Assembly (NCBI RefSeq): GCF_047663525.1 | Contig: NC_092588.1 | Span: forward strand, 44,522,001-44,586,000 | Direction: 5' to 3' | DNA: 64,000 bases | Source of the DNA: Anas platyrhynchos | Taxonomy: Eukaryota > Chordata > Aves > Anseriformes > Anatidae | Position numbers and translations under genes: made by a program | Notes under the pieces: generated by a model | Told to the model about the DNA's origin: nothing | What the model saw: only the letters and a program-made list of their open reading frames with translations | The model's database searches: none | Shown here: positions 26,058 to 64,000 of the stretch, piece after piece | How positions within the stretch are numbered: position 1 is the first letter of the stretch | How the letters are laid out: each line of letters opens with the position of its first letter

Positions 26058-26082
26058 CAGGGCATGTTTAGTTTTGAATTAA

Positions 26083-26088
26083 AATAAA
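26083..26088 (+). terminator. Polyadenylation signal, unit 1
   Basis: AATAAA 26 bases after the stop codon, overlapping ATTAAA at 26078. The same hexamer recurs at 29981, 33879 and 37777, but not in unit 5. Confidence 0.7.
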
Positions 26089-28428: not shown

Positions 28429-28434
28429 CACAGA

Positions 28435-28498
28435 GCGATGGGCTGTGATGTCACCCAGCGATAGGCTGTGACCTCACGGCCCTCACTGCTTATATAGG
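28435..28498 (+). promoter_or_regulatory. Unit 2 promoter: CRE-like pair and TATA
   Basis: The TATA box is at 28491. Unlike unit 1, the next element upstream of the old CR1 remnant is the young CR1 tail, about 280 bp before the remnant. Confidence 0.65.
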
Positions 28499-29955: not shown

Positions 29956-30384
29956 CAGGGCATGTTTAGTTTTGAATTAAAATAAATCTATAAAAGCAGT
30001 GACTCTGACACAGTGTCTTGCTCTTACTCCAAAGAGAGTTCAGGGCAGAGCCTACGAGTGATGTCACAAATGAGGGGTGGGAGGTGGGATGGGTGTTCCA
30101 GGAAACAGGGCCCAAAACTCTATAGTTTTTAAAAAAGAAATCACTGCTGCTTCACAGCACTAGTTATGTGTGGCTACTATAAAAAGAGATTCACTTCGGA
30201 AGTAGCCTGATATCACAGAAGTTTCATGCCTTTTTACAAGAAATTAAACTGTCCCTATTCAATGAAGTGGCCAAATGGGGAGGTGATCAGACGTTTGCAC
30301 ACCCTGAGTATGTAAGTTTGCACACCCTATCAGCAAGGCTGTCTGGGAAAGGAATAGCTTCAGGGGAAACCAGGTATTATTTTT

Positions 30385-31619
30385 CCTTTATTTTCCTGAT
30401 TTCCTTTTATGATAAGATCACCCGTATGGTGGACCAAGGGAAACCAGCTGATGTGATTTTTTTGGACTTCAGCAAGGCTTTTGACACGGTTTCCCATAGG
30501 ATCCTACTGGACAAAATGTCCACCATACAGCTAAATAAAAACATCATACGATGGGTGAGCAATTGGCTAACGGGCAGGGCCCAAAGGGTTATGGTGAATG
30601 GCGCTGCGTCAGGCTGGCGGGCGGTCACTAGTGGGGTCCCTCAAGGCTCCATTTTAGGGCCGGTACTTTTCAATATTTTTATAAACGATCTGGATGTAGG
30701 AATAGAAGGTATTTTGAGCAAGTTTGCTGATGACACCAAACTTGGAGGAGCTGTGGACTCGAATGAGGGTGGAAGGGCCTTGCAGAGGGATCTGGATAGG
30801 TTGGAGAGCTGGGCGATCGCCAACCGCATGAAGTTCAATAAGAGCAAGTGCCGGGTCCTGCACCTGGGACGGGGAAACCCTGGCTGCACGTACAGACTAG
30901 GCGATGAGACGCTGGAGAGCAGCCTAGAAGAGAGGGATCTGGGGGTCGTGGTAGACAACAAGTTGAATATGAGCCGGCAGTGTGCCCTGGCAGCCAGGAG
31001 GGCCAACCGTGTCCTGGGGTGCATCAAGCACGGCATCGCTAGTAGGTCGAGGGAGGTTATTGTCCCGCTCTACTCTGCGCTGGTGCGACCTCACCTCGAG
31101 TACTGTGTGCAGTTCTGGGCACCACAGTATAAAAAGGACATGAAACTGTTGGAGAGTGTCCAGAGGAGGGCTACGAAGATGGTGAAAGGCCTGGAGGGGA
31201 AGACGTACGAGGAACGGCTGAGGGCACTGGGCCTGTTCAGCCTGGAGAAGAGGAGGCTGAGGGGAGACCTCATCGCAGTCTACAACTTCCTCGTAAGGGG
31301 GTGTCGAGAGGCAGGAGACCTTTTCTCCATTAACACCAGCGACAGGACCCGCGGGAACAGGGTTAAGCTGAGGCAGGGGAAGTTTAGACTTGACATCAGG
31401 AGGGGGTTCTTCACAGAGAGGGTGGTTGCACACTGGAACAGGCTCCCCAGGGAAGTGGTCACTGCACCGAGCCTGACTGAATTTAAGAAGAGATTGGACT
31501 GTGCACTTAGTCACATGGTCTGAACTTTTGGGTAGACCTGTGCGGTGTCAAGAGTTGGACTTGATGATCCTTAAGGGTCCCTTCCAACTCAGGATATTCT
31601 ATGATTCTATGATTCTATG
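30385..31619 (+). mobile_element. 5'-truncated CR1 in unit 3
   Basis: Same insertion, same ends and same ATTTTT duplications as in unit 2, hence one ancestral insertion copied with the unit. ORF2 remnant open to 31523. Reads FINDLD at the residue altered in unit 2. Confidence 0.95.
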
Positions 31620-31900
31620 ATTTTTGTTTTTCTTCTAGTCAGAAAGTGCCAGCTTGACCAAAGTGAAACATGGGAAAGTGGTAGCAGTTTCAGCGGGAAA
31701 AGGAGCTCTGGTTCAAACAGGGCCTTGAAAAGCAGGTCTTATGGTGACATGGCATGCCCAAAAGAATTGAATCAGATAATGGGACTCATTTCTGAAACAA
31801 CCTCTTGCATTCCTTTGGTCTACCGGCCACTTGATGTCTCCAGCACAACTGTGCTAGCCGGTCAGGGGAAGGGATCGCTGTGCTCTGCTCTGTGCTCTTT

Positions 31901-32326
31901 CAGCTTCACCTCCAGTCCTGTGTGCAGTTTTGGGCACCACAGTAACAGAAGGACATAAAACTATTGGAGTGCCCAAAGGAGGGCTTCAAGCTAGTGGAGG
32001 ATCTGGAGGGCAAGATGGAGGAGGAGCGGCTGAGGTCTCTGCTTTTGTTCGGCCTGCAGGAGACTGAAGAGAGGTCTCATGGTGGCCTACATTTTCCTCA
32101 GGAGGGGAGCAGAGGGCCTGGCACAGAGCTCTGCTCTCTGGGGACAGTGACAAAACTCAAGGGAACGGCATGAGGCTGTGACAGGGGAGGGTCTGGCTGG
32201 AGGTGAGGAAAAGACTCTTCACTGGCGGGGGTCTCGGCCACTGAAACAGGCCTCCCAGTGAAGTGGTGAGGGCAGGAAGCCTGCTGAAGTTCACAAAGCG
32301 TCTGGGCAATGCTCTCAGACATGTCA
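31901..32326 (+). mobile_element. Old CR1 remnant, unit 3
   Basis: Copy of the 24105 remnant at +7796 bp. Confidence 0.7.
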
Positions 32327-32332
32327 CACAGA

Positions 32333-32396
32333 GCGATGGGCTGTGATGTCACCCAGCGATAGGCTGTGACCTCACGGCCCTCACTGCTTATATAGG
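32333..32396 (+). promoter_or_regulatory. Unit 3 promoter: CRE-like pair and TATA
   Basis: TATA box at 32389; both CRE-like octamers unchanged. Confidence 0.65.
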
Positions 32397-32821
32397 GGCG
32401 CTGGCAGAGCCCGCCCCAGCCTGGCTCGTGCCTGGACTCCTGCTGAGCGAGTGTGCGAGGCTTGGAGAGACGAGCAAGGGTTTGGTGGAGCTGTGCTGGG
32501 GGGCCACTGGCAGCTGTTCTCAGTGCCTGTCCCCACAGCCAGTACCCGTGTTTCCCCGGCCCTGCCTGGCTCAGGCAGCCGGGGCCCTGTGAGGCGCGCT
32601 TGCAGCAACACAGGTGAGCTGTGTGGGGACACGTACCCTGGGGTGGCCCGCAGGGGGCACGGGATGGCTCAGCCGCGGGGATGGGGATGGGTCTGGGGGT
32701 TTCCTGCTGACCCTGGCCTCTCTCCTCCTTGCAGCGCGCAGCACCTGTCTCGGCGGCACCAGAGAGGGGAAGCAGCTCACCACCCGCAGCTCTCCCCAGC
32801 CTGCCGCAGCGAGACAGCACC

Positions 32822-33853
32822 ATGGCCACAGAGGCTGAAGTCACCTGCCCTGTGTGCCAGGGGTCCCTGAAGGAGCCCAGCGTCATCAGCCCCTGTCAGC
32901 ACCAGTTCTGCTTCGGCTGCATCATGCGCTGGGCCAAGAGGAGCGTCAGCTGCCCCCTCTGCAGGCAGGACATCACCTCCATACGCTACTCCATCTGGTC
33001 CGAAGACGACTTTCTGGAGGTCCAAGTTGTCAGCCATGCAGAGAACCAAGAGGACAGCCAGCAGGACGAGCAGGGGGCTGCAGTGCCGGTGCCCCCGGCT
33101 GCCGTGAGCGGCCTCCTGCCAGAGGAATGGGCGGCCCTCTTCAGGGAGCATCCTGAAATCCTCGGTCCTCTGAGGCCCTGGGTGCGCCAGCAAGCCAGGG
33201 AGTTGTTTGGGGCTGCCTGGTGGGACCAGGATGTGCTAGAGGCCAAGGTCATTGCTTGGCTGTGCCGCTTTGGGCTGGAGGAGGTGGTCTTGGTTCGCGA
33301 GATGCAGCCGTTCCTGCAGGGCCATACAGAGCGCTTTGTGAACCAGCTCATTGATAGAGCTGTAGACATGTGCAGCGATGAGTTCCTCGAGGAGCTGGGG
33401 CTCCTGGAGCCCCCTCCTGCAAGCCAGCACCAGAATGGCCCTGAGGTGGACCTGGGGTGCTCCCATGTCCGGGAGCCAGAAAACAGCACTGAAGCCACCC
33501 CCAGCCATGCTGCCTCCTGCCAGGATGCTCCTCTCACCATCGTGCTGTCCTCCAGCAGCTCAGAGGATTCTGATATCGAGGAGCTCCCCAGCACCTCCAG
33601 TGCCGCCCTGCGTGGGGGTCCTGCCCACCCTCCCACTGCACCCATCCCCACAGAGCGGGAGGAGCCCTGCAGAGAGCCGGGACAGGCGGCAACAGAAGGT
33701 GCCGCGATGCAGGGCTGCAGCCACAGGCCGTCTCCTCCTGGCCAGGGCAGGGACAGTTCTCCTGGGGGGCCCCGGCGCCCCCCGAAGAGAAGATCCAACA
33801 GCAGCCCGGACTCTCCCAAACCCTGCAAGAGGCCGCCTCCCCGGCGCCTTTAG
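32822..33853 (+). CDS. TOPORS-like RING-finger E3 ligase, array copy 3
   Basis: Predicted protein identical to copy 1. Leader intron 32614-32734, AATAAA at 33879. Central copy of the array; I saw no unit-specific base in its coding part. Confidence 0.85.
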   Translation: MATEAEVTCPVCQGSLKEPSVISPCQHQFCFGCIMRWAKRSVSCPLCRQDITSIRYSIWSEDDFLEVQVVSHAENQEDSQQDEQGAAVPVPPAAVSGLLPEEWAALFREHPEILGPLRPWVRQQARELFGAAWWDQDVLEAKVIAWLCRFGLEEVVLVREMQPFLQGHTERFVNQLIDRAVDMCSDEFLEELGLLEPPPASQHQNGPEVDLGCSHVREPENSTEATPSHAASCQDAPLTIVLSSSSSEDSDIEELPSTSSAALRGGPAHPPTAPIPTEREEPCREPGQAATEGAAMQGCSHRPSPPGQGRDSSPGGPRRPPKRRSNSSPDSPKPCKRPPPRRL

Positions 33854-34282
33854 CAGGGCATGTTTAGTTTTGAATTAAAATAAATCTATAAAAGCAGTGA
33901 CTCTGACACAGTGTCTTGCTCTTACTCCAAAGAGAGTTCAGGGCAGAGCCTACGAGTGATGTCACAAATGAGGGGTGGGAGGTGGGATGGGTGTTCCAGG
34001 AAACAGGGCCCAAAACTCTATAGTTTTTAAAAAAGAAATCACTGCTGCTTCACAGCACTAGTTATGTGTGGCTACTATAAAAAGAGATTCACTTCGGAAG
34101 TAGCCTGATATCACAGAAGTTTCATGCCTTTTTACAAGAAATTAAACTGTCCCTATTCAATGAAGTGGCCAAATGGGGAGGTGATCAGACGTTTGCACAC
34201 CCTGAGTATGTAAGTTTGCACACCCTATCAGCAAGGCTGTCTGGGAAAGGAATAGCTTCAGGGGAAACCAGGTATTATTTTT

Positions 34283-35517
34283 CCTTTATTTTCCTGATTT
34301 CCTTTTATGATAAGATCACCCGTATGGTGGACCAAGGGAAACCAGCTGATGTGATTTTTTTGGACTTCAGCAAGGCTTTTGACACGGTTTCCCATAGGAT
34401 CCTACTGGACAAAATGTCCACCATACAGCTAAATAAAAACATCATACGATGGGTGAGCAATTGGCTAACGGGCAGGGCCCAAAGGGTTATGGTGAATGGC
34501 GCTGCGTCAGGCTGGCGGGCGGTCACTAGTGGGGTCCCTCAAGGCTCCATTTTAGGGCCGGTACTTTTCAATATTTTTATAAACGATCTGGATGTAGGAA
34601 TAGAAGGTATTTTGAGCAAGTTTGCTGATGACACCAAACTTGGAGGAGCTGTGGACTCGAATGAGGGTGGAAGGGCCTTGCAGAGGGATCTGGATAGGTT
34701 GGAGAGCTGGGCGATCGCCAACCGCATGAAGTTCAATAAGAGCAAGTGCCGGGTCCTGCACCTGGGACGGGGAAACCCTGGCTGCACGTACAGACTAGGC
34801 GATGAGACGCTGGAGAGCAGCCTAGAAGAGAGGGATCTGGGGGTCGTGGTAGACAACAAGTTGAATATGAGCCGGCAGTGTGCCCTGGCAGCCAGGAGGG
34901 CCAACCGTGTCCTGGGGTGCATCAAGCACGGCATCGCTAGTAGGTCGAGGGAGGTTATTGTCCCGCTCTACTCTGCGCTGGTGCGACCTCACCTCGAGTA
35001 CTGTGTGCAGTTCTGGGCACCACAGTATAAAAAGGACATGAAACTGTTGGAGAGTGTCCAGAGGAGGGCTACGAAGATGGTGAAAGGCCTGGAGGGGAAG
35101 ACGTACGAGGAACGGCTGAGGGCACTGGGCCTGTTCAGCCTGGAGAAGAGGAGGCTGAGGGGAGACCTCATCGCAGTCTACAACTTCCTCGTAAGGGGGT
35201 GTCGAGAGGCAGGAGACCTTTTCTCCATTAACACCAGCGACAGGACCCGCGGGAACAGGGTTAAGCTGAGGCAGGGGAAGTTTAGACTTGACATCAGGAG
35301 GGGGTTCTTCACAGAGAGGGTGGTTGCACACTGGAACAGGCTCCCCAGGGAAGTGGTCACTGCACCGAGCCTGACTGAATTTAAGAAGAGATTGGACTGT
35401 GCACTTAGTCACATGGTCTGAACTTTTGGGTAGACCTGTGCGGTGTCAAGAGTTGGACTTGATGATCCTTAAGGGTCCCTTCCAACTCAGGATATTCTAT
35501 GATTCTATGATTCTATG
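34283..35517 (+). mobile_element. 5'-truncated CR1 in unit 4
   Basis: Same orthologous insertion; ORF2 remnant open to 35421. Shares the CAGACTAGGC variant with unit 3. Confidence 0.95.
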
Positions 35518-35798
35518 ATTTTTGTTTTTCTTCTAGTCAGAAAGTGCCAGCTTGACCAAAGTGAAACATGGGAAAGTGGTAGCAGTTTCAGCGGGAAAAG
35601 GAGCTCTGGTTCAAACAGGGCCTTGAAAAGCAGGTCTTATGGTGACATGGCATGCCCAAAAGAATTGAATCAGATAATGGGACTCATTTCTGAAACAACC
35701 TCTTGCATTCCTTTGGTCTACCGGCCACTTGATGTCTCCAGCACAACTGTGCTAGCCGGTCAGGGGAAGGGATCGCTGTGCTCTGCTCTGTGCTCTTT

Positions 35799-36224
35799 CA
35801 GCTTCACCTCCAGTCCTGTGTGCAGTTTTGGGCACCACAGTAACAGAAGGACATAAAACTATTGGAGTGCCCAAAGGAGGGCTTCAAGCTAGTGGAGGAT
35901 CTGGAGGGCAAGATGGAGGAGGAGCGGCTGAGGTCTCTGCTTTTGTTCGGCCTGCAGGAGACTGAAGAGAGGTCTCATGGTGGCCTACATTTTCCTCAGG
36001 AGGGGAGCAGAGGGCCTGGCACAGAGCTCTGCTCTCTGGGGACAGTGACAAAACTCAAGGGAACGGCATGAGGCTGTGACAGGGGAGGGTCTGGCTGGAG
36101 GTGAGGAAAAGACTCTTCACTGGCGGGGGTCTCGGCCACTGAAACAGGCCTCCCAGTGAAGTGGTGAGGGCAGGAAGCCTGCTGAAGTTCACAAAGCGTC
36201 TGGGCAATGCTCTCAGACATGTCA
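35799..36224 (+). mobile_element. Old CR1 remnant, unit 4
   Basis: Copy of the 24105 remnant at +11694 bp. Confidence 0.7.
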
Positions 36225-36230
36225 CACAGA

Positions 36231-36294
36231 GCGATGGGCTGTGATGTCACCCAGCGATAGGCTGTGACCTCACGGCCCTCACTGCTTATATAGG
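36231..36294 (+). promoter_or_regulatory. Unit 4 promoter: CRE-like pair and TATA
   Basis: TATA box at 36287; no change seen. Confidence 0.65.
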
Positions 36295-36719
36295 GGCGCT
36301 GGCAGAGCCCGCCCCAGCCTGGCTCGTGCCTGGACTCCTGCTGAGCGAGTGTGCGAGGCTTGGAGAGACGAGCAAGGGTTTGGTGGAGCTGTGCTGGGGG
36401 GCCACTGGCAGCTGTTCTCAGTGCCTGTCCCCACAGCCAGTACCCGTGTTTCCCCGGCCCTGCCTGGCTCAGGCAGCCGGGGCCCTGTGAGGCGCGCTTG
36501 CAGCAACACAGGTGAGCTGTGTGGGGACACGTACCCTGGGGTGGCCCGCAGGGGGCACGGGATGGCTCAGCCGCGGGGATGGGGATGGGTCTGGGGGTTT
36601 CCTGCTGACCCTGGCCTCTCTCCTCCTTGCAGCGCGCAGCACCTGTCTCGGCGGCACCAGAGAGGGGAAGCAGCTCACCACCCGCAGCTCTCCCCAGCCT
36701 GCCGCAGCGAGACAGCACC

Positions 36720-37751
36720 ATGGCCACAGAGGCTGAAGTCACCTGCCCTGTGTGCCAGGGGTCCCTGAAGGAGCCCAGCGTCATCAGCCCCTGTCAGCAC
36801 CAGTTCTGCTTCGGCTGCATCATGCGCTGGGCCAAGAGGAGCGTCAGCTGCCCCCTCTGCAGGCAGGACATCACCTCCATACGCTACTCCATCTGGTCCG
36901 AAGACGACTTTCTGGAGGTCCAAGTTGTCAGCCATGCAGAGAACCAAGAGGACAGCCAGCAGGACGAGCAGGGGGCTGCAGTGCCGGTGCCCCCGGCTGC
37001 CGTGAGCGGCCTCCTGCCAGAGGAATGGGCGGCCCTCTTCAGGGAGCATCCTGAAATCCTCGGTCCTCTGAGGCCCTGGGTGCGCCAGCAAGCCAGGGAG
37101 TTGTTTGGGGCTGCCTGGTGGGACCAGGATGTGCTAGAGGCCAAGGTCATTGCTTGGCTGTGCCGCTTTGGGCTGGAGGAGGTGGTCTTGGTTCGCGAGA
37201 TGCAGCCGTTCCTGCAGGGCCATACAGAGCGCTTTGTGAACCAGCTCATTGATAGAGCTGTAGACATGTGCAGCGATGAGTTCCTCGAGGAGCTGGGGCT
37301 CCTGGAGCCCCCTCCTGCAAGCCAGCACCAGAATGGCCCTGAGGTGGACCTGGGGTGCTCCCATGTCCGGGAGCCAGAAAACAGCACTGAAGCCACCCCC
37401 AGCCATGCTGCCTCCTGCCAGGATGCTCCTCTCACCATCGTGCTGTCCTCCAGCAGCTCAGAGGATTCTGATATCGAGGAGCTCCCCAGCACCTCCAGTG
37501 CCGCCCTGCGTGGGGGTCCTGCCCACCCTCCCACTGCACCCATCCCCACAGAGCGGGAGGAGCCCTGCAGAGAGCCGGGACAGGCGGCAACAGAAGGTGC
37601 CGCGATGCAGGGCTGCAGCCACAGGCCGTCTCCTCCTGGCCAGGGCAGGGACAGTTCTCCTGGGGGGCCCCGGCGCCCCCCGAAGAGAAGATCCAACAGC
37701 AGCCCGGACTCTCCCAAACCCTGCAAGAGGCCGCCTCCCCGGCGCCTTTAG
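36720..37751 (+). CDS. TOPORS-like RING-finger E3 ligase, array copy 4
   Basis: Predicted protein identical to copy 1. Leader intron 36512-36632, AATAAA at 37777. Confidence 0.85.
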   Translation: MATEAEVTCPVCQGSLKEPSVISPCQHQFCFGCIMRWAKRSVSCPLCRQDITSIRYSIWSEDDFLEVQVVSHAENQEDSQQDEQGAAVPVPPAAVSGLLPEEWAALFREHPEILGPLRPWVRQQARELFGAAWWDQDVLEAKVIAWLCRFGLEEVVLVREMQPFLQGHTERFVNQLIDRAVDMCSDEFLEELGLLEPPPASQHQNGPEVDLGCSHVREPENSTEATPSHAASCQDAPLTIVLSSSSSEDSDIEELPSTSSAALRGGPAHPPTAPIPTEREEPCREPGQAATEGAAMQGCSHRPSPPGQGRDSSPGGPRRPPKRRSNSSPDSPKPCKRPPPRRL

Positions 37752-38180
37752 CAGGGCATGTTTAGTTTTGAATTAAAATAAATCTATAAAAGCAGTGACT
37801 CTGACACAGTGTCTTGCTCTTACTCCAAAGAGAGTTCAGGGCAGAGCCTACGAGTGATGTCACAAATGAGGGGTGGGAGGTGGGATGGGTGTTCCAGGAA
37901 ACAGGGCCCAAAACTCTATAGTTTTTAAAAAAGAAATCACTGCTGCTTCACAGCACTAGTTATGTGTGGCTACTATAAAAAGAGATTCACTTCGGAAGTA
38001 GCCTGATATCACAGAAGTTTCATGCCTTTTTACAAGAAATTAAACTGTCCCTATTCAATGAAGTGGCCAAATGGGGAGGTGATCAGACGTTTGCACACCC
38101 TGAGTATGTAAGTTTGCACACCCTATCAGCAAGGCTGTCTGGGAAAGGAATAGCTTCAGGGGAAACCAGGTATTATTTTT

Positions 38181-39415
38181 CCTTTATTTTCCTGATTTCC
38201 TTTTATGATAAGATCACCCGTATGGTGGACCAAGGGAAACCAGCTGATGTGATTTTTTTGGACTTCAGCAAGGCTTTTGACACGGTTTCCCATAGGATCC
38301 TACTGGACAAAATGTCCACCATACAGCTAAATAAAAACATCATACGATGGGTGAGCAATTGGCTAACGGGCAGGGCCCAAAGGGTTATGGTGAATGGCGC
38401 TGCGTCAGGCTGGCGGGCGGTCACTAGTGGGGTCCCTCAAGGCTCCATTTTAGGGCCGGTACTTTTCAATATTTTTATAAACGATCTGGATGTAGGAATA
38501 GAAGGTATTTTGAGCAAGTTTGCTGATGACACCAAACTTGGAGGAGCTGTGGACTCGAATGAGGGTGGAAGGGCCTTGCAGAGGGATCTGGATAGGTTGG
38601 AGAGCTGGGCGATCGCCAACCGCATGAAGTTCAATAAGAGCAAGTGCCGGGTCCTGCACCTGGGACGGGGAAACCCTGGCTGCACGTACAGACTGGGCGA
38701 TGAGACGCTGGAGAGCAGCCTAGAAGAGAGGGATCTGGGGGTCGTGGTAGACAACAAGTTGAATATGAGCCGGCAGTGTGCCCTGGCAGCCAGGAGGGCC
38801 AACCGTGTCCTGGGGTGCATCAAGCACGGCATCGCTAGTAGGTCGAGGGAGGTGATTGTCCCGCTCTACTCTGCGCTGGTGCGACCTCACCTCGAGTACT
38901 GTGTGCAGTTCTGGGCACCACAGTATAAAAAGGACATGAAACTGTTGGAGAGTGTCCAGAGGAGGGCTACGAAGATGGTGAAAGGCCTGGAGGGGAAGAC
39001 GTACGAGGAACGGCTGAGGGCACTGGGCCTGTTCAGCCTGGAGAAGAGGAGGCTGAGGGGAGACCTCATCGCAGTCTACAACTTCCTCGTAAGGGGGTGT
39101 CGAGAGGCAGGAGACCTTTTCTCCATTAACACCAGCGACAGGACCCGCGGGAACAGGGTTAAGCTGAGGCAGGGGAAGTTTAGACTTGACATCAGGAGGG
39201 GGTTCTTCACAGAGAGGGTGGTTGCACACTGGAACAGGCTCCCCAGGGAAGTGGTCACTGCACCGAGCCTGACTGAATTTAAGAAGAGATTGGACTGTGC
39301 ACTTAGTCACATGGTCTGAACTTTTGGGTAGACCTGTGCGGTGTCAAGAGTTGGACTTGATGATCCTTAAGGGTCCCTTCCAACTCAGGATATTCTATGA
39401 TTCTATGATTCTATG
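38181..39415 (+). mobile_element. 5'-truncated CR1 in unit 5
   Basis: Same insertion as in units 2-4; ORF2 remnant open to 39319. It shares CAGACTGGGC with unit 2 and FINDLD with units 3-4, a mosaic that suggests exchange between units. Confidence 0.95.
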
Positions 39416-39696
39416 ATTTTTGTTTTTCTTCTAGTCAGAAAGTGACAGCTTGACCAAAGTGAAACATGGGAAAGTGGTAGCAGTTTCAGCGGGAAAAGGA
39501 GCTCTGGTTCAAACAGGGCCTTGAAAAGCAGGTCTTATGGTGACATGGCATGCCCAAAAGAATTGAATCAGATAATGGGACTCATTTCTGAAACAACCTC
39601 TTGCATTCCTTTGGTCTACCGGCCACTTGATGTCTCCAGCACAACTGTGCTAGCCGGTCAGGGGAAGGGATCGCTGTGCTCTGCTCTGTGCTCTTT

Positions 39697-40122
39697 CAGC
39701 TTCACCTCCAGTCCTGTGTGCAGTTTTGGGCACCACAGTAACAGAAGGACATAAAACTATTGGAGTGCCCAAAGGAGGGCTTCAAGCTAGTGGAGGATCT
39801 GGAGGGCAAGATGGAGGAGGAGCGGCTGAGGTCTCTGCTTTTGTTCGGCCTGCAGGAGACTGAAGAGAGGTCTCATGGTGGCCTACATTTTCCTCAGGAG
39901 GGGAGCAGAGGGCCTGGCACAGAGCTCTGCTCTCTGGGGACAGTGACAAAACTCAAGGGAACGGCATGAGGCTGTGACAGGGGAGGGTCTGGCTGGAGGT
40001 GAGGAAAAGACTCTTCACTGGCGGGGGTCTCGGCCACTGAAACAGGCCTCCCAGTGAAGTGGTGAGGGCAGGAAGCCTGCTGAAGTTCACAAAGCGTCTG
40101 GGCAATGCTCTCAGACATGTCA
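39697..40122 (+). mobile_element. Old CR1 remnant, unit 5
   Basis: Copy of the 24105 remnant at +15592 bp. Confidence 0.7.
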
Positions 40123-40128
40123 CACAGA

Positions 40129-40192
40129 GCGATGGGCTGTGATGTCACCCAGCGATAGGCTGTGACCTCACGGCCCTCACTGCTTATATAGG
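40129..40192 (+). promoter_or_regulatory. Unit 5 promoter: CRE-like pair and TATA
   Basis: TATA box at 40185; both CRE-like octamers intact although the unit's 3' end has diverged. Confidence 0.65.
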
Positions 40193-40617
40193 GGCGCTGG
40201 CAGAGCCCGCCCCAGCCTGGCTCGTGCCTGGACTCCTGCTGAGCGAGTGTGCGAGGCTTGGAGAGACGAGCAAGGGTTTGGTGGAGCTGTGCTGGGGGGC
40301 CACTGGCAGCTGTTCTCAGTGCCTGTCCCCACAGCCAGTACCCGTGTTTCCCCGGCCCTGCCTGGCTCAGGCAGCCGGGGCCCTGTGAGGCGCGCTTGCA
40401 GCAACACAGGTGAGCTGTGTGGGGACACGTACCCTGGGGTGGCCCGCAGGGGGCACGGGATGGCTCAGCCGCGGGGATGGGGATGGGTCTGGGGGTTTCC
40501 TGCTGACCCTGGCCTCTCTCCTCCTTGCAGCGCGCAGCACCTGTCTCGGCGGCACCAGAGAGGGGAAGCAGCTCACCACCCGCAGCTCTCCCCAGCCTGC
40601 CGCAGCGAGACAGCACC

Positions 40618-41649
40618 ATGGCCACAGAGGCTGAAGTCACCTGCCCTGTGTGCCAGGGGTCCCTGAAGGAGCCCAGCGTCATCAGCCCCTGTCAGCACCA
40701 GTTCTGCTTCGGCTGCATCATGCGCTGGGCCAAGAGGAGCGTCAGCTGCCCCCTCTGCAGGCAGGACATCACCTCCATACGCTACTCCATCTGGTCCGAA
40801 GACGACTTTCTGGAGGTCCAAGTTGTCAGCCATGCAGAGAACCAAGAGGACAGCCAGCAGGACGAGCAGGGGGCTGCAGTGCCGGTGCCCCCGGCTGCCG
40901 TGAGCGGCCTCCTGCCAGAGGAATGGGCGGCCCTCTTCAGGGAGCATCCTGAAATCCTCGGTCCTCTGAGGCCCTGGGTGCGCCAGCAAGCCAGGGAGTT
41001 GTTTGGGGCTGCCTGGTGGGACCAGGATGTGCTAGAGGCCAAGGTCATTGCTTGGCTGTGCCGCTTTGGGCTGGAGGAGGTGGTCTTGGTTCGCGAGATG
41101 CAGCCGTTCCTGCAGGGCCATACAGAGCGCTTTGTGAACCAGCTCATTGATAGAGCTGTAGACATGTGCAGCGATGAGTTCCTCGAGGAGCTGGGGCTCC
41201 TGGAGCCCCCTCCTGCAAGCCAGCACCAGAATGGCCCTGAGGTGGACCTGGGGTGCTCCCATGTCCGGGAGCCAGAAAACAGCACTGAAGCCACCCCCAG
41301 CCATGCTGCCTCCTGCCAGGATGCTCCTCTCACCATCGTGCTGTCCTCCAGCAGCTCAGAGGATTCTGATATCGAGGAGCTCCCCAGCACCTCCAGTGCC
41401 GCCCTGCGTGGGGGTCCTGCCCACCCTCCCACTGCACCCATCCCCACAGAGCGGGAGGAGCCCTGCAGAGAGCCGGGACAGGCGGCAACAGAAGGTGCCG
41501 CGATGCAGGGCTGCAGCCACAGGCCGTCTCCTCCTGGCCAGGGCAGGGACAGTTCTCCTGGGGGGCCCCGGCGCCCCCCGAAGAGAAGATCCAACAGCAG
41601 CCCGGACTCTCCCAAACCCTGCAAGAGGCCGCCTCCCCGGCGCCTTTAG
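40618..41649 (+). CDS. TOPORS-like RING-finger E3 ligase, array copy 5
   Basis: Predicted protein identical to copy 1. Leader intron 40410-40530. Its 3' UTR differs: the AATAAA of the other copies is replaced by an uninterrupted A-tract (about 41673-41681), leaving only the weaker overlapping ATTAAA. Transcripts of this copy may therefore end less efficiently or elsewhere, in the single-copy flank after 41812. Confidence 0.85.
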   Translation: MATEAEVTCPVCQGSLKEPSVISPCQHQFCFGCIMRWAKRSVSCPLCRQDITSIRYSIWSEDDFLEVQVVSHAENQEDSQQDEQGAAVPVPPAAVSGLLPEEWAALFREHPEILGPLRPWVRQQARELFGAAWWDQDVLEAKVIAWLCRFGLEEVVLVREMQPFLQGHTERFVNQLIDRAVDMCSDEFLEELGLLEPPPASQHQNGPEVDLGCSHVREPENSTEATPSHAASCQDAPLTIVLSSSSSEDSDIEELPSTSSAALRGGPAHPPTAPIPTEREEPCREPGQAATEGAAMQGCSHRPSPPGQGRDSSPGGPRRPPKRRSNSSPDSPKPCKRPPPRRL

Positions 41650-41812
41650 CAGGGCATGTTTAGTTTTGAATTAAAAAAAAATCTATAAAAGCAGTGACTC
41701 TGACACAGTGTCTTGCTCTTACTCCAAAGAGAGTTCAGGGCAGAGCCTACGTGTGATGCCACAAATGAGGGGTGGGATGTGGGATGGGTGTTCCAGGAAA
41801 CAGGGCCCAAAA

Positions 41813-54700: not shown

Positions 54701-56201
54701 ACACAAGCAGGGATGCTACCCACAAGAGTACTGTTATACTCTTCCTACTAAGTAGAGATCCCATTAGCAGAAGCGTCACATTGTGTTTCATTTAAAACAT
54801 TCTGGGTACTAACTGAAAAGATGCTGCAAAACAATATCAGCTTCTTATTAAAATAATAATTTAGTTTCATCTGCTTCTCATACATAGATTAGCGAAAAGA
54901 GAGTCTTCTCCTTTAATGTCCTTCCAGAACCTCAGCAACTGGCTAAAATCTCCACAGAAGGATTCAACAAAATAACAGTTCTTGGCAAAATTACAATGTG
55001 TAGCTGAAACACTCTCTTGCTTTCCAAAAACAGCATTTGTAAAGAAAACTGAATTTCCTAGGAAACTTTATACAACCTTTTGGCACTTTTGACCTGAACA
55101 ATTAATATTCAGGGAATTGGGATTGATTTGCACTGATAATTAAAATGAAGTAATACTATGACAGAATGCTAGTGGTTTACCAGGAAAAAAAATAAAATGA
55201 CAAATAAATAAATAAATAAATAAATCAGGGAGACCTTTCTTTCCCAACTGCATTTGATAATGACGGAAAGCCAGGAGTCCAGGAAGTCACTACCTTTCCC
55301 AGTTCTCAATCTGCCCCTTCACTTTTTGGAGTTCAGCCCCAAAGCTGCCTACCTTGTTGCTTAAAGAAATATAGCAAATTTCAAATTCATTTTATAGACA
55401 CAGGGACTCTATTAGTCCGTGGTATCCAGTGCCAAAGACTTGTTTTTGCATGCTTCATGCATAAAAGCAGTATCTTGAAATAAAGACTTTAATCTCCTGA
55501 GCCAGAAGTCAGTGTCCACTGTGGGGCTGTCAAGGTTGGATCTATTTCTCATTTCAGTGTCTTTGGAAATGCTACATTGGTTAATGCATCTATCATGCAG
55601 ATACTGTTTAAGTAACACCATGCTGAAATATTATCATCATTCCTAGGAAGCCATACCTGACTAAACTCTCCTGACAAGAATAATTACCTGTTTAACCAAC
55701 TTAACTGTCTACTGCAGCATATAAGATTTTTATTAAGAGCTGGTGCACGGCATTCATAATGAGCAGAGCCATATATATATATTCAGGACACAGTTTTATT
55801 TGGTAAACTGTTCCAACTAGTTAAGATTGTTGAGAGTACAGTCATTTACCACCAGACAGTGCAGCAACATAAGCTCTTCTAGCAAGCATGGGTTTCTGAA
55901 CTGCTGTCCCATCTGCTCCTGAGGATGCTAACACCGGTGCTTTGGCTGGTACAGCTGGCTTGGTGGTCATTTCAATATATAATCAATGTAAGAGCAGGAG
56001 CTTGAGCTCTTATTTCCATACTCTTCTTCCAAAGCTGCTTGGCACTACTACAGGGCTTCTGCAAGGCTGGCACTTCCCTGACAGCTCAGGCAGAACATTC
56101 ACTTGGATAAGCTCTCTTAGTTTTAAACCTTTACACTTAAGTTTATGGATTTTCATTGTAAATATTATGTTTGAGACAAAAGAAAATATGCAGCAGTGCT
56201 G

Positions 56202-56248
<47 letters not shown>

Positions 56249-58133
56249 AATTTCTATCAATAATTAGCAGCCAAAGTAATGAGGAAGATGGCAGCATAGT
56301 GAAGAAAGTTTCCATTACATACTTGCCCTGCCACTGTCATCCCAATGCATACATTCTCATTCCTCTTGTGTAGCGGAGGCGTATAAATATGCAAAGATCT
56401 TCAATGAAAGGGGTTTAAACAACCTGTTTTCAATGGCAAGTTATCAATACTGAGAAAATTTAAGATTTTTCTTGGCAATCTTCATCAACACCAAGTTTCA
56501 CACCTTCAGAAAGGATATTAGAGAATACTAAAAATAGGTACAGAGTCTTCAGAAAAGTTACAGCCAGCAGCCAGCTTAATAAAATACTGAACAAAACTAT
56601 AGCAATATCTTGGACAGAAGAAAACTTTTCTGATGAGTATGTTCAGCACCCATTCATTTTCTCTGAACCCTAGCATGTACAGAAGAAATTCCTTACCTGG
56701 TAGGAAAAAAAAAATAAAATAAAAGACCCAGACAAACAATAAAATATTCCTTTTTTCCTTGTAACCTTTTAAGGTTCTGTTATGTAAAAGTTCTACATAT
56801 TATTCTAAAAATACAAATATTTCTAAATGGGATTTCAGTAAGTTAAAGGTAATTTCTGCTGTAATATATGTCTATAAAAGAATAAAGGAATTTAATAGTG
56901 GTTTTTTGCGTAGCTGAGAATACAATTCATTCAGAATGCTTGAGGCTCTTTTGACCTATAGATAACCAGGGAGGATTTGAAAAACAGCCAGAAACAGAAC
57001 ATGAACCTCTAAGGCATCTCTCCTCTGCGGTCTGGAAAATAAAACTGTGATCTTTAAGGACAGATGTTAAGATGAAAAATGGTATTAGTTGTGATTCCTG
57101 AGCCACAGCCCCTGAACTCAAGTGATGCATTCAATCAGTTCTGTCACAACAGGAAAACATTCTGGAGTATTCTTTCCTCCTACTCCTTCTCCCAAGCAGA
57201 GCTAGAAGTGCTTTGAGCCACCACTGCCGTTTCCCTCCTACAGCAGCTCCCTTTGGTAGCCCATGGCAGCGCAATAGGGAGAGATGCAATGTTTTGCCTG
57301 TTTGTTTTATTTTTAATTTGTCTTGTGGCAGCTGAGCTTTTTGGTACACTCAGATCATGTATTCAAGTGTAAGTATTTATTTTCTTGGTCAGAAGTAATT
57401 GTTACTTTCTCTGCAATCTCCTCAACATACAAAAATATCTTCTGTGGCCTAGGGCATCAAAATACCCAGAGACACTTGTTTAAGGACTACCATTAAGTTA
57501 TTTCCTTCCGTAAGTAAAATTCTTTTTTTTTTTTTTTTTTTTTTTTTTGAGCAGCATTTCCATTTTCCTGGAGGAAACAGGGTAAGGAAGTATGCCACAG
57601 TTATCAGGAGGAGAACACCACATCTATTCTAACTTAAAAAGAGGAAAACCCAAGAAACTAAATTCACAAGCATCAGCTGAATTGATTTATACACTGCTAT
57701 AGTCCATAAGCAACATCTTTAAAACATTAATTTTTCACTTTTTCACCTACTACTAAGGCAATTAGCAGAACTCATAAACCAAGTGACATTTTACAAATTG
57801 ATGATTTACTCTTGTAAACCGATAGAAATGCATAGTAAATAAATCTTGATTTAAATGGGATCAGGAAATCACTCAGTCCTGGAATACATTTAATCAGCAT
57901 TCATGGTTAAAACAGAAGTGTTGAGAAAATGATTATCCTCTGCACCAGCCTACTTTTTACTCTATTTTTTTTTTCTTTTCCATGAAATTATTCAAGGGTA
58001 ATAAGTTTGAAAGGACAGCAAATATTAATAGACTGAGATAATGACAATATGCATATGAAGAAAGGTTGAAGTTCCTTCGGTGGATTTCTACTACTGCAAA
58101 TATATTTTACAATACTCAGAAATAATCTCTTAC
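54701..58133. other. AT-rich non-coding stretch
   Basis: Contains a 41-base A-run (56206-56246) and a 26-base T-run (57523-57548). No gene recognised. Confidence 0.45.
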
Positions 58134-58268
58134 CTCACTGGAGTAACAGGAGAATAAGCAGAAAAGATCCAGGAGTCATTGCTATATCCACTGCAATTCA
58201 GAGACCTGATTTCTCTTATCTGTGCTAGACGACACTTCCATGTAGACAGCTCTGAATCACAGTAGATG
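58134..58268 (-). other. Putative coding exon, 135 bp, unrecognised gene
   Basis: On the minus strand the acceptor AGCTCTTCTATTTCAG and the donor CCAGTGAG|GTAAGAG frame exactly 135 bases. Only one frame is open, and it is open throughout: 44 complete codons with one leading and two trailing bases, so skipping would keep frame. The peptide (IYCDSELSTWKCRLAQIREI, then NCSGYSNDSWIFSAYSP) has three cysteines and N-glycosylation sites (NCS, NDS), which suggests an extracellular protein. I do not recognise the family. Neighbouring exons were not found with confidence. Confidence 0.45.
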
Positions 58269-61200
58269 CTGAAATAGAAGAGCTTTAAAATTAAAACTTT
58301 TTAGTAAAATTAGAAGGTAGGTTTTACATATTTCATAAATATAATTGAGAATAATATTGAAGAGAAACTCCGTCCCCATTAACCTGATCATAGCCATGAC
58401 TTTACCACATATGATTCCATTCTCCTTTAAGCAGTCTCACTGACACTGACTGCTAGTAAAGCAGCCACGCTTGCGTTTTCAAAAAGAAGAATATTAGAAA
58501 TGTTGATTTTGTGGTTTCATTGGTGGATTGAAAAGGAAATCAGTAAGGAAGCTTTGGTTTATTACTGAGCTTCCTCAAAATGTTCAGTTATTATGACCTC
58601 AGGTTTAAATAATGTAAGCCATCCAAAACCTGTATTTTTTATTATCGTTATTTTCATTGTATTATTTATAATACAAGCTCCCTCAGCAAAGTATAGGTAT
58701 TTTCCACTCATTCTACCACTTTGGCAGAGTGTTTCTTACAACTTAAAACAATTGATTTTACTTATCTTTTTATCTTAACAAATTTGCTGTACATAAATGG
58801 CAACAGAAAAGAGAATCCTTTTGGTAACAGTTCAAAACACAAACTGTGCACTGAGACCCACAAAGGCCACAGGTACTGAGCATTATTTCTACTGCACAGG
58901 AATTCTGTCAATAAACAGACACTAAATGTGAAAAATCTTCTGTTTTTATTTTGACACCTTTTGTGTTTAGTTTATTTTGATGTAGTTTATCCTGAGTAGA
59001 GACATCTAATTTCAGGACTCCCAAGCTACTTAGTAAACAAAGCTAGAACAAAAGTTTTTAAACACATTGAACCAAGGAATACATAATCCTCATTATGAAA
59101 AAGATGTTTCAAGGCACAAGTCACTAGAAAATTTGTATCTTTCATTTGACTGACAAGGATTTACTCAAAGTAAATCTGTACTCATTCTCTGCTGTCTTGA
59201 AATCTTGAATCCTGACAGTAGGTAACATTTATCTATAATCTACGACACCAAGAAGAATGAAGACTATTATTTGGCTCTCTACAGAAGGTCTCACTGGGAG
59301 AGAAATAGATCTCCAACACCTCTCTCTTGAAAATTTTCTAATTGCTGAATCAAGCATTTTACTTTTTTTCTGTCTTTTACCTGAAGCTCTGAACAATAGC
59401 AACATGATGTCAGGAGTTGCAAATACATATATGCAGAATAGAGAATCCCCTCACCTAGGAAAATAGTTAGAAAATGAGTTAATAACAATGCAGGACAGAC
59501 CGTGATAGTCAGGCACTGGGTATGGCTGGACATGCACCCTGACCAGCAGCTCGCTTACACTAGACTGATCCTTTCCGTCCTTTTTGCCCCATGTTTGTCC
59601 CTCCACAAATCACTGTGATCTCTTTTCTTTTCCCACCTTGGGTTCCCCCCCTCCAAACTGTCATGAGTTTTGTACAGTCTCAAGAGGATCTTTCCTTGCA
59701 TGCCATAGAGATTTCCATAGCCCTAGGCAGTAACCCCTCTCAATCTGTCAGGGGATTTGGGGAACCTGCCCCATTATCTCAGTGGGCATCACACACAGAC
59801 CATGGGGCTGTTGGCTCACCTTGGACTGCTCTGGGAGAAGCCAAGTCATGGTGCCTCATTTCTCTGGTTAGATTATTGGGGTTTCTCCACCTGCCATTGG
59901 TCTTCTCTGCTCCTCTGTTTTTGTGGAGAAGAGTCTTTTATCATATAACCTAACAAATTAGACTTTTCCTGAAAATAAAAAGTCACCTCCACCTCCTGAT
60001 GAGACAGAACACGTTTAGGAGCTGAAAGCACTAGATGGCAGCAGTGCTTAACTCATATAATTTGGATACAAAAGTAGGAGAGCAGCCACCCACACAGCAA
60101 TACAATGGAGTTTCTATGTATTTCCCGTGGCACCCGAGGCACGAATTTAAAACTAAAGACAATGTAGATAAATCTCACAAAACTGTTGATAAAATGCCAG
60201 TGAATACAGAAGGCAATAGCAGAATCAAGATTTTCCAATTTCATGCCAATGTAAAACAGGAATAGTAGTAATATGACATGAAGTAACAATTTAGTAGTAA
60301 CTACTGAATGCATTTTTCAATGTCAGAGATAAAAATATTGCAGAACTGGAATACAGTGCTCCTAAATTAAACCCTGTATACAGACAAGAAAAAATACAAA
60401 GTGCCTAGACATTCCTGGGGGGACATTCTTGGGACAGGGTGCTCTCTACCCTCTTTCATACCTAGATAAATACTCACTTCCACTCTTTTTTCATGCCTGT
60501 TCCCACATCCATCATCGTTTTTTTCAATCTTTTTGCTTCACCACATTCTCCTGCGATCCATTTCAAGGCCTTCTTGCTTTTCATGTTAACTTGACCTCAG
60601 CTGTCTCCAGTTCTTTGCATTTCCCTGTATTTTAAGCTTGCCTTATGTACCCTGCACTCCCTGACCTACCAGATGTTTCTTTGTGTTTACCCTCTGCTTC
60701 TCATGACATCTCCTTATTGTCTTCACCTTGCTTGCCTGCATAGACAGCTGCTTTATTTCAGAATGGTTGTCCTAGTTCTAACCTTGTTTGACAGAAGTAC
60801 TGCTTCCCCTAAAAGTTTAAAGCTCCCAATATTTTTTTTGTTTGTTTTTGATTTTGTTTTCTTTTTTCTTTCTTCCCTTCTGAGGTTTATGTCCCTTCAA
60901 GCACCTACATAATTCTGTCCCATCGTCTACCTCCCACTTCCATTTGGCTGGGCAATATCACCCCTCTCCCCTCTGCCTGCCTACCCTGGCAGTGCCAGCA
61001 CTACCCTGATGCTGCTGAAGAGAAGGAGGAAGACACATGAGAAACCCCACAGTGCCAAGGACTGCCAACATCTGTGCAATTAATGGCAATTAGTGGTTAT
61101 TTTTGATAAGGCTTAAACTCCAGATGGTTGAAGCGTCATAAGACCCAGTGAAAAAGTGTGATTGTGGGGCTTTTTGCTCAGGCAATGATAGATACAGTCC

Positions 61201-61599
61201 GTGAGGAAACCTTGCTGCTGGAGAAATACTCTGATAGCTCCTCTTCATTCAAGAATTCATCTCCTCGGCACATCCCCAGCCCAATCCAGCCAGAATCTGT
61301 CCCTGTCTGGGGTCCCCTGGGCAGTGCACCCCTCAGCAGCAGCCGCCTCTGCCACATGCGGCCACTGACAGAGAAACCTCACCGGGAGGGGAGGAGCCGG
61401 CTGCCGCCATGTTCTGCACAGCCCCCGCTGCCACTTGTCCCAGCCCTTCAGCACGGCCCTCAGCCCTCCAGGAGCCAGGGACTCGGTGCTTTAGCCTTGG
61501 TGGGCACTGGTGGCCGGGTTGTGGCTCTGCTCGTAGGGCAGCAGGGACACCTTGGATTGCAGCCACGTGTAGCGGGCATAAGCGATACTTTTTGGCCTC
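58269..61599. other. Mixed non-coding stretch
   Basis: AT-rich to 59500, then pyrimidine-rich. GC content rises at 61280-61570, just before the CATSPERD copy. No gene recognised; an open frame at 59591-59953 has no domain features. Confidence 0.4.
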
Positions 61600-63644
61600 A
61601 CAGTGACATTGATGAGAGGAACCTACATGAGCTACTACAGTGCCAGCCCCACCATCCTGCAGCACCCCCGTGAAGGGTTTGGCTCTAAGAGGCAGCCAAA
61701 GGTATCCACACACCTGGAGAAGGATGTTTTCATCAGCATGGATGCTTCTGAGAGCAGCATCTCTGCTCTCCCCATCCCAGAAGAACTTAAGGCCAAAGAA
61801 GCTGCCATCAGCACCATCACCTGTGTGCACACAGTCACGATAATGATCAATGGTCAGGTTTACCTGTACTTCAAGAGCCTTGACAGATGGAGCCCATCAG
61901 CAGGAGTCACTTCCCCTGGGTTTGAACACTCATACACACATTGCTGTTACTTGGTGGCAGACTCCCAGTGCAAGGAGCTCAGCTGGACCCTTTTTGCTTA
62001 TGACACCAGGTGCTCAGTCTCCAACAGTTGCATCTTTGTTTCAAAGGATGGGAGTTACACATTTACATCTATCAAGAGTAATATAAGAAAGCAAAGAGCA
62101 CTGTTTGGGGTTTACAACTTCATCTCCCTTGCCATGACCGGCTTGCTTATCAGCAGAACTGGAGAGGATGAGGCAGGGAAGGTGGCAGCAGGGACCCATT
62201 TCAGATACAATGGAAGATCATGGAAGAAGTGGCTGTCCTGCCTTCAAAGAGGTTTCAAAGTACTACTTTTCCTGACAATGGTTTCCTCCTTGTAACTGCA
62301 GGTGTCTCCCAAATTGTAGCCTTGACCCAGAACAGACATCTCCTGTGGCAGCATCAGGCTTGTCACTAGCATGATGCGTGTTGCCATGGATGAGAACATG
62401 GATTTGAAAAACAGATATCATTTGAAGAAAGAGGGTGGTTGACCATGCTCAGCCCTGTGATCAGCAATTTTTCTCAGCTGTTATGACCAAGAAATGCAAA
62501 CTTGACTTGAAGTTAGCAGTCTGGAAATCTCAGCAGTCCTGCACTGTGGAGATCCTCACAGGAAACTTTGGGAACAATATCTATTACATTGACATGCATA
62601 GAAATATAACTTTGAAAACTCTATTTGTGCCCAAGCCTGACAAAATGTTCATTCACTTGGTGACAGGCAGCAATTCACATGTGCTGGCTTTCAGTGCAAA
62701 TGTAATATAAATTGGACTTATATATGACAGAAACATCCAATAACTCTTGCATATAATTCTGGAGCAGCAGAACGTCTCTTCTTTTGCATAGGCTGACTTC
62801 TGTGATGGCATATGTGACGGAGACATGTCTACTGCCACTGTGGATATCCCTGACAATATCATTGGCTATACTGATACAGCTCCCACAACTGCACTTACTG
62901 CAGCGCCCTGCCCACCTACAGGAAACAGCACTGAGAAGTAAATTCAGTTATACAAACAGCCAAAAACATATGACTCACAGTTTCTTGCCAGAGAAAATGC
63001 ACAGCCATCTATAGAGCAAATTTAACTTTAAATCTATGGAGCAAAGCTAACTTTACAAATCTGGGATGCCCTCTCCTGACACATTACAAAAATCTTCAGG
63101 TGGCAGGTCTTGAGTTATGGGAAGACAGTAAGTACCAGAAGCATGTCTTCCAACTTTATGTTTGAAATACACAGAATGCATAACTATGATTATCTCTGAA
63201 CTGCATATGATGCAAAGTGCTTCTCTCAGCCTCAGAATTGGACTTCTTTGCTGGAAGAACAGTCCATATACTACATGGTCCAAAAGAAACTATATGGGCT
63301 GTAAGAATAGAAGTGAAGCTGAGTTAAAGTGGCCCTCCATCAAGCATCCCATTCTTCATAAAGATTAAAATAAGATCATTTTCCCTCCATATAGTGGTCT
63401 ATACATCTTTAAAGCCAGTGTAGTGGCTACATTGTATAGGTATTATGATTTATCTGTAACCTCATTATATATACGTGGTGCTTTTCCCACAAGCTATCTA
63501 AGCTTTTGGACAGCACCGTCAGGCATTCTGATTTTATTTTTGATTTTTACAAGATGTTGCCTACCCTATTTATCACTAAAAACTGAATGCCAAAAAATGC
63601 CAAAAACTCCAAGTATTTTCACTGCAATTTTTGAAAGCTTCTAG
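61600..63644 (+). pseudogene. CATSPERD: CATSPERD processed pseudogene
   Basis: An intronless copy covering nearly all of CATSPERD (auxiliary delta subunit of the sperm CatSper calcium channel, about 800 aa in human, many exons). Colinear anchors against recalled human CATSPERD: VFISMDASESS (VFLTIDNFESS), SHxxCC..CKELSWTLFAY (CC..CLELSNNLFAY), SKDGSYTF (SDNGGFSF), QRGFKVL, IDMHRN..LVTGSNSHVLAFSAN (IDMNSK..SNPHALGFKAN), TVDIPDN (TVDIADK), LGCP..ELW, SQPQNW (identical), W..NYMGC, then GLYIFKASVV and a C-terminal hydrophobic segment at about 63516-63560. The first 230 codons (61603-62295) are one open frame. After that the match hops between frames with several in-frame stops (at least five breaks), and about 50 codons are missing after QRGF. 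The loss of all introns indicates retrocopying. The signal peptide region and a poly-A tail are not visible. Confidence 0.8.
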
Positions 63645-64000
63645 GAGAGCTAATTGCAGAAGTTCTTTTGTTTGGGAAAATTTTTTGATATTACAAAAAT
63701 CTGATGGGGAAACTATCCCAGTGTCCTCTTCCTAATTATAAAATTAAATTTTTGATATTTTGAAGTTGTAAAAAAAAAGTTCATTTCACAATGGTTTTTA
63801 ACTTGTTAACCGGTTTTACCCATTTTTTCCCCCCATTTATCATTCTAAACTTATCGCTGACCACGTGTGGCTAGAGACAGTATAGGTTTTTTTCCAAGCA
63901 TATAATCTCAGAAACATGACAGTTTAATTTTAGGAAATAACTTTTACATCAAGTGGACTGAAGATAATTTTTTGTTAGTAAGAATGAAGACTGTGACAAA
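63645..64000. other. AT-rich end of window
   Basis: Nothing recognised. A short A-run at about 63770 could be a decayed tail of the retrocopy, but there is no way to tell from sequence alone. Confidence 0.4.

What the first reader, a model, noticed from the sequence alone, without database searches (positions are those of the whole stretch)
61600..63644. Fossil retrocopy of CATSPERD, a subunit of a sperm channel reported lost in birds
Seen: a colinear, intronless match to nearly the whole of CATSPERD, from the N-terminal region to the transmembrane segment, with frame breaks. Known: CatSper channel genes have been reported absent from birds. Inferred: if the host is a bird, this retrocopy records a time when CATSPERD was still expressed in the germ line, and could date or reconstruct the loss. 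The first 230 codons being open is surprising for something that old.
Basis: partly seen in the sequence, partly recalled or inferred. Interest (0 to 1): 0.8.

Follow-up and report, generated by a model that had tools for sequence, protein, structure and literature searches.

The report
Dead intronless CATSPERD copy in duck
A bird chromosome, probably a duck's, carries a nearly complete but broken, intron-free copy of CATSPERD, a gene for part of the sperm calcium channel that many birds have lost, so it looks like a molecular fossil of the lost channel rather than a working gene.

Summary
Window 61612-63613 (+) is colinear with CATSPERD from about human residue 41 to just past the transmembrane segment: 718 reference columns in 2002 bp, with no room for introns. 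A frame-aware alignment scores 503.5, against at most 45.5 in 36 controls. The three Pfam CATSPERD domains match in order. The path has 8 frameshifts and 7 stops, all from 62272 on.

It is the only CATSPERD found in the 1.26-Gb host genome. CATSPERB and CATSPERG gave nothing above cut-off; of CATSPERE one decayed exon was found. The copy lies about 4 kb from TRAPPC8, not beside LONP1, the parent's neighbour in human (recalled).

Best reading: a processed pseudogene that outlived its parent. The open N-terminal stretch is no better conserved than the rest and only mildly long for chance. Stop decay suggests 34-126 My of neutral drift (95% limits 11-226). No target-site duplication was found and the poly(A) trace is weak. 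CATSPERD 'fragments' published for zebra finch and chicken may be this same copy. A formerly functional retrogene is not excluded.

The parts
61612..63613 (+). Intronless CATSPERD copy, colinear with about human residues 41-750, broken frame
   Evidence: frame-aware alignment score 503.5, max of 36 controls 45.5
61582..62292 (+). 237-codon open frame holding the first part of the beta-propeller; its first 10 codons have no CATSPERD match
   Evidence: PF15020 positions 2-179 at 61621-62166
62272..62545 (+). Damaged second half of the beta-propeller: four inferred frameshifts and missing columns (largest run 28); alignment poor here, so lesion positions uncertain
62546..62899 (+). Ig-like CATSPERD domain with three in-frame stops
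   Evidence: PF23747 1-118, 109.2 bits, 1 TAG and 2 TAA
63007..63055 (+). 25-bp tandem duplication inside the copy, a likely frame-shifting lesion
   Evidence: Tandem Repeats Finder, 2.0 copies, 87% matches
63043..63572 (+). C-terminal CATSPERD/E domain up to the transmembrane segment, in three frame pieces with stops
   Evidence: PF22850 in three pieces, two over cut-off; CATSPERD chain residues 676-720 in PDB, E 0.0026
63743..63778 (+). ATTAAA followed by a run of nine A: possible end of the copied mRNA (weak)
   Evidence: such pairs occur 5 times on + (this one included) and 3 times on - in 88 kb
61585..61603 (+). Pyrimidine-rich stretch ending in CAG just before the first matched residue; splice-acceptor-like by eye, unproven
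   Evidence: sequence read

Best explanation
A processed (retrotransposed) copy of CATSPERD mRNA, made in the germ line of an ancestor that still expressed CatSper, inserted beside TRAPPC8 on the host's chromosome C2. It lacks the signal-peptide end, has drifted neutrally since it stopped being constrained, and now most likely codes for nothing. The intron-bearing parent has since become unrecognisable in this genome; CATSPERB and CATSPERG were not found over cut-off either, and of CATSPERE one decayed exon was found. Shown: identity, lack of introns, frame damage, no second copy found, the search results for three other subunits. Inferred: reverse transcription as the mechanism, germ-line expression at that time, and the age.
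For: Intronless and colinear over 2 kb. 8 frameshifts and 7 stops on the alignment path. No other copy found by family, protein or DNA search. Not at LONP1, which is at C29:3.82 Mb (mitochondrial Lon by PDB match). CATSPERB best 19.8 bits and CATSPERG best 17.3 bits, cut-off 27. CATSPERE-like relic exon at C3:30783933, 24 kb from an adenylosuccinate-synthase first exon. No LTR or other repeat recognised in the flanks. The open part is no better conserved than the rest.
Against: No target-site duplication of 9 bp or more found between 61101-61625 and 63561-64110 beyond a chance-level 11-mer with one mismatch; shorter ones were not sought. The poly(A) trace is weak. Retrocopies are rare in a bird: 78 counted in chicken in PMC3136929 (passages). 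That the parent gene has introns is recalled, not tested. The open 660 bp is mildly long for pure drift (0.04 at 15 lesions). The genome DNA search skips very common words, so flanking repeats of that kind could be missed (its own note).
Confidence: 0.75

Rival explanations
1. The copy was once the working CATSPERD: an old retrogene that replaced its intron-bearing parent in the line to birds, gained an upstream 5' exon, and died when neognaths lost CatSper.
For: Seven stops on the path give d about 0.09-0.10, so constraint could have ended as late as about crown neognaths. No CATSPERD trace above control in 40 kb at LONP1. Acceptor-like CAG at the first matched residue, where a new 5' exon would join. 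Eight upstream ATG frames with a hydrophobic core exist in 56001-61610 and were not followed. PMC6679542 gives one zebra finch CATSPERD fragment at position 10.2 Mb of a scaffold, with synteny 'traced through phylogenetic relationships'.
Against: The CATSPERD N-terminus is not recognisable in the 311 bp upstream: 179 and 184 of 200 shuffles score as well. No ortholog in CatSper-bearing palaeognaths or reptiles could be read here. The acceptor-like motif was judged by eye and is of a common kind.
Confidence: 0.15
2. The open N-terminal frame is a surviving short protein derived from CATSPERD under selection.
For: Open for 237 codons while the rest has about 15 lesions; chance of the first 660 bp being free 0.0025-0.027 if that end had been named beforehand.
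Against: Conserved residues are kept no better than in the broken part (38 of 103 against 101 of 233; 31 of 89 against 108 of 247 with the border at 62170). The chance rises to 0.04-0.27 when the gap may lie anywhere. No signal peptide recognised just upstream. The frame breaks off inside the propeller.
Confidence: 0.07
3. A gene whose introns were lost by deletion, or a single giant exon, rather than an RNA copy.
For: No target-site duplication and weak poly(A).
Against: Human CATSPERD is recalled as having some twenty exons; precise loss of every intron by deletion is implausible.
Confidence: 0.03

Closest known systems
CATSPERD (TMEM146), auxiliary subunit delta of the CatSper channel
   Same: The three CATSPERD Pfam domains in order; 25-31% identity to human (recalled letters) and mouse in the two main parts of the path
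   Different: No introns, broken frame, no signal-peptide end found, not beside LONP1
CatSper fragments in zebra finch and chicken (PMC6679542, passages and Table 1 rows seen; PMC2572835, passages seen)
   Same: Relics of CatSper genes in neognath birds; CATSPERD listed as a fragment in zebra finch (267 bp by its coordinates), and chicken said to share the pattern
   Different: The passages seen speak of fragments or truncation, not of a retrocopy. Here it is nearly full length and intronless. Whether it is the same locus could not be checked
Processed pseudogenes / orphan retrocopies
   Same: Intronless, decayed, at a new place, parent not found
   Different: No target-site duplication and only a doubtful poly(A) trace recognised
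CATSPERE
   Same: Shares the C-terminal domain model; a relic exon resembling it is in this genome on C3
   Different: Propeller and Ig-like parts of the window copy match CATSPERD models, and the N-terminal, Ig-like and C-terminal pieces hit CATSPERD chains first in the PDB

Membership tests
CATSPERD by descent | CATSPERD propeller, CATSPERD Ig-like domain, shared C-terminal domain, in order | tested here: met
Functional CatSper subunit | Intact reading frame with signal peptide and transmembrane helix | tested here: not met
   8 frameshifts, 7 stops, match starts at about residue 41; N-terminus not recognised in 311 bp upstream
Functional CatSper subunit | Partner subunits in the same genome | tested here: not met
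   CATSPERB and CATSPERG below cut-off; of CATSPERE only its shared C-terminal domain was sought, giving one relic piece; CATSPER1-4 not tested
Processed pseudogene | Introns absent over the length of the copied mRNA | tested here: met
   2002 bp for 718 columns; presence of introns in the parent is recalled
Processed pseudogene | Lies away from the parent locus | tested here: met
   beside TRAPPC8 on C2, while LONP1 is on C29; parent-LONP1 adjacency in human is recalled
Processed pseudogene | Poly(A) tail at the 3' end | tested here: inconclusive
   ATTAAA then nine A, but such pairs are not rare
Processed pseudogene | Target-site duplication | tested here: not met
   only a chance-level 11-mer with one mismatch; under 9 bp not sought; can erode with age
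LTR-mediated retrocopy | LTR sequences around the copy | tested here: not met
   no paired repeats: best 60 self-match rows for 56-70 kb are A/T runs; flanks match only themselves and three short places
Retained coding gene (open N-terminal frame) | Excess conservation of the open part | tested here: not met
   38 of 103 against 101 of 233
Retained coding gene (open N-terminal frame) | dN/dS among relatives, transcription | not testable with these tools
   no other bird genomes or RNA data held

The most novel reading that the evidence does not exclude
In the line leading to birds the working CATSPERD was itself this intronless retrogene beside TRAPPC8, having replaced its parent. The copy then records, in one place and with lesions shared among orders, the moment at which neognaths lost CatSper.
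Probability: 0.15. Interest if true: 0.7.

Novelty: new member of a known kind. Interest (0 to 1): 0.45.

Why it matters
CatSper drives hyperactivated sperm swimming in mammals, yet neognath birds are reported to have lost most of its subunits (PMC6679542, passages), and I know of no firm date for it. A nearly full-length copy that decays in one piece is a better clock and a better source of ancestral bird sequence than scattered relic exons. If the same insertion sits beside TRAPPC8 in chicken and songbirds, its shared and private lesions would bracket the loss. It would also mean that CATSPERD 'fragments' reported in birds are a retrocopy rather than remains of the native gene.

Tried and rejected
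Better match to another family: rejected; over cut-off there are only CATSPERD(/E) models, and PDB searches of three pieces put CATSPERD chains first. Parent gene in the host: not found. Protein search at E<=10 reported 3 places, the window and two at E 2.05 and 2.42. DNA search gave only itself (that search skips very common words). tblastn of recalled human, mouse and the copy's own path in 40 kb at LONP1 gave best E 0.57, while a control 40 kb gave a better one, 0.077, and the window 4.6e-32. Of 10 open frames tried there, 1 hit Pfam, below cut-off (zf-UBR), so the neighbours on that side are unnamed and synteny there is unproven. Only 40 of the 150 kb first asked for at LONP1 was read. Signal-peptide end: N-terminus not recognised in 311 bp upstream; eight ATG frames with a hydrophobic core in 56001-61610 were listed and not followed. 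Target-site duplication: none of 9 bp or more. LTR-borne copy: no sign. A second C-terminal match on C3 (E 0.045) was followed: its only PDB hits at E<=10 are the two CATSPERE chains (0.049, 0.053), and it lies 24 kb from an adenylosuccinate-synthase first exon, so I take it as a CATSPERE relic, on weak numbers; the 80 kb fetched around it was not scanned for more CATSPERE exons. Low matches not followed: C5 for CATSPERB (E 0.27), C1 for CATSPERG (0.72), C1 for the Ig domain (7.29).

Papers: PMC6660944, PMC11289002, PMC4290089, PMC2572835, PMC3136929 and PMC6679542 were seen as found passages only; supplements could not be read. Other papers were seen as listings with the start of the abstract.

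Full report
What is there. The open frame 61582-62292 (237 codons) matches the CATSPERD beta-propeller model at 124.8 bits. The Ig-like CATSPERD domain follows at 62546-62899 with three stops inside, and the C-terminal CATSPERD/E domain at 63043-63572 in three pieces in three frames, two of them over cut-off. PDB searches with three separate pieces (N-terminal, Ig-like, C-terminal) each put the two CATSPERD chains first. It has 8 frameshifts, 72 missing columns and 19 inserted codons; the longest inserted run is 7 codons. The reverse strand scores 37.5, and 36 control segments (18 places of this genome, both strands) score 37.2 on average, 45.5 at most. The span, 2002 bp, is shorter than three times its 718 columns, so no introns remain.

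Frame damage. On the path there are 8 frameshifts and 7 stops, all at or after 62272. Positions in 62272-62545 are uncertain because the alignment there is poor. A 25-bp tandem duplication lies at 63007-63055. The lesion-free first 660 bp would have probability 0.0025 to 0.027 if that end had been named beforehand, and 0.040 to 0.27 as the longest gap anywhere, for 15 down to 9 lesions. With the border set at 62172 the corresponding ranges, for 15 down to 10 lesions, are 0.007-0.038 and 0.12-0.40. Residues shared by human and mouse are kept at 38 of 103 places in the open part and 101 of 233 in the rest, Fisher p 0.28. So the open stretch looks like the long tail of chance, not selection.

Host. 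The window is C2:44522001-44586000 of a 1,261,873,621-base genome in 42 contigs. Lengths include C1 207.5 Mb, C2 160.2 Mb, C3 121.4 Mb and a 16,604-base C42. Of 10 globin places three exons were searched in the PDB. The alpha-A-like exon hits 3eok best among single chains (146.1 bits; next 1faw 142.5, 1a4f 140.9; 3a59 138.5); engineered fused chains rank above it because they hold two copies. The beta-like exon hits 3eok and 3a59 equally (165.7 bits), so it does not decide. The alpha-D-like exon hits 1hbr best among single chains and does not decide either. I recall 3eok as mallard, 1faw and 1a4f as goose, 3a59 as ostrich and 1hbr as chicken haemoglobin, and 16,604 bp as a mallard mtDNA length; these names are recall. 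On this the host is an anseriform, probably a duck, hence a neognath.

CatSper in this host. CATSPERD: one place only by propeller model (3 candidates scored, 1 match at E<=0.001), one over cut-off by Ig model, one credible by protein and one by DNA. CATSPERB best 19.8 bits and CATSPERG best 17.3 bits, both below the cut-off of 27. The exon-wise search does find multi-exon genes: two Lon loci in 6 pieces and two adenylosuccinate synthase loci in 16 pieces. A piece at C3:30783933 matches the shared C-terminal domain at E 0.045, below cut-off and with a stop. Its only PDB hits at E<=10 are the two CATSPERE chains, 0.049 and 0.053, and it lies 24 kb from an adenylosuccinate synthase first exon. 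ADSS2-CATSPERE adjacency in human is recalled. Other CATSPERE domains and CATSPER1-4 were not searched.

Place. Open frames on the minus strand at 67445-67960 and 85895-86416 of the extended contig match TRAPPC8 domains, so the copy lies about 4 kb from the C-terminal coding exon of TRAPPC8. LONP1, the parent's neighbour in human (recalled), is at C29:3822226-3823774: its exon hits mitochondrial Lon chains best, whereas the C12 Lon locus hits bacterial-type Lon chains better than mitochondrial ones. In 40 kb at LONP1 no CATSPERD trace rose above a control. The CATSPERE relic shows how little a native gene may leave, so this does not prove absence.

Mechanism. Lack of introns and a new place argue for an RNA copy. 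The 3' end has ATTAAA at 63743 and nine A at 63770-63778, but similar pairs occur 5 times on + (this one included) and 3 times on - in 88 kb. No target-site duplication of 9 bp or more was found. The flanks match nothing else in the genome but three short places of 38-50 bp, with the tool's caveat that very common words are skipped. Which enzyme made the copy is open: CR1 elements are said to make few retrocopies, with 78 counted in chicken (PMC3136929, passages).

Age. Treating stops as a clock, the 7 stops on the path give d = 0.090-0.104 substitutions per site, or 47-80 My at recalled avian rates of 1.9 and 1.3 per 1e9 years. Allowing S = 5 to 11 for uncertain lesions gives d = 0.064-0.164 and 34-126 My, with 95% limits from 11 to 226 My. 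It is consistent with decay since roughly the neognath radiation and too loose to say more.

Literature. Birds are not uniformly without CatSper. Apteryx and Tinamus keep it, and ostrich keeps three alpha subunits (PMC6660944, passages). CATSPERB among birds was seen only in a ratite (PMC4290089, passage). Zebra finch has fragments of CATSPER3, B, D and E, and chicken shares the pattern with CATSPER2 fragments in addition; CATSPER1, CATSPER4 and CATSPERG are listed as missing in Neognathae (PMC6679542, passages). PMC2572835 reports degenerate CatSper fragments in chicken and zebra finch (passages). PMC11289002, by contrast, reports CatSper2-4 in some birds and only CatSper1 missing (passages). 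The finch CATSPERD fragment is given as MUGN01000898.1:10200480-10200746. A coordinate above 10 Mb does not fit a chromosome of the size that holds LONP1 here (C29, 8.85 Mb), so the finch fragment may be the same copy; this is inference. Searches for CATSPERD with birds, TMEM146 with birds, and CATSPERD with pseudogene listed 2, 1 and 4 papers. Of these only PMC6679542 was opened, and the passages seen describe no CATSPERD retrocopy.

Verdict. A real, nearly full-length, most likely dead retrocopy of CATSPERD in what is probably a duck: a new member of a known kind, useful for dating a gene loss, with a bolder reading (a former working retrogene) left open at about 0.15.

Noticed in passing
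window 23817-41683: About 4.6 tandem copies of a 3898-bp unit, full copies 99.9% identical, with a RING-finger open frame (380 codons) and a reverse-transcriptase-like open frame (446 codons) in the first unit by Pfam and same-length frames in the others (the fifth, partial unit has only the 380-codon one). Recent amplification; origin not worked out.
   Followed up: partly
window 5582-9183, minus strand: A LINE-like element: a 955-codon frame with endonuclease and reverse transcriptase domains and a 249-codon upstream frame with a below-cut-off GDSL-lipase match; CR1-like by recall.
   Followed up: partly
L007 1501-1665 (C3:30783933-30784097): Single decayed exon resembling CATSPERE, 24 kb from an adenylosuccinate synthase first exon: probably remains of native CATSPERE.
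   Followed up: partly
window 61201-61600: GC-rich (0.59-0.64) block, richer in CpG than its neighbours, ending right at the start of the CATSPERD match and without other long matches in the genome; could be an old promoter or exon.
   Followed up: partly
67445-86416 of the extended contig (L002, L004), minus strand: Two open frames with TRAPPC8 domains, the nearest recognised gene.
   Followed up: no
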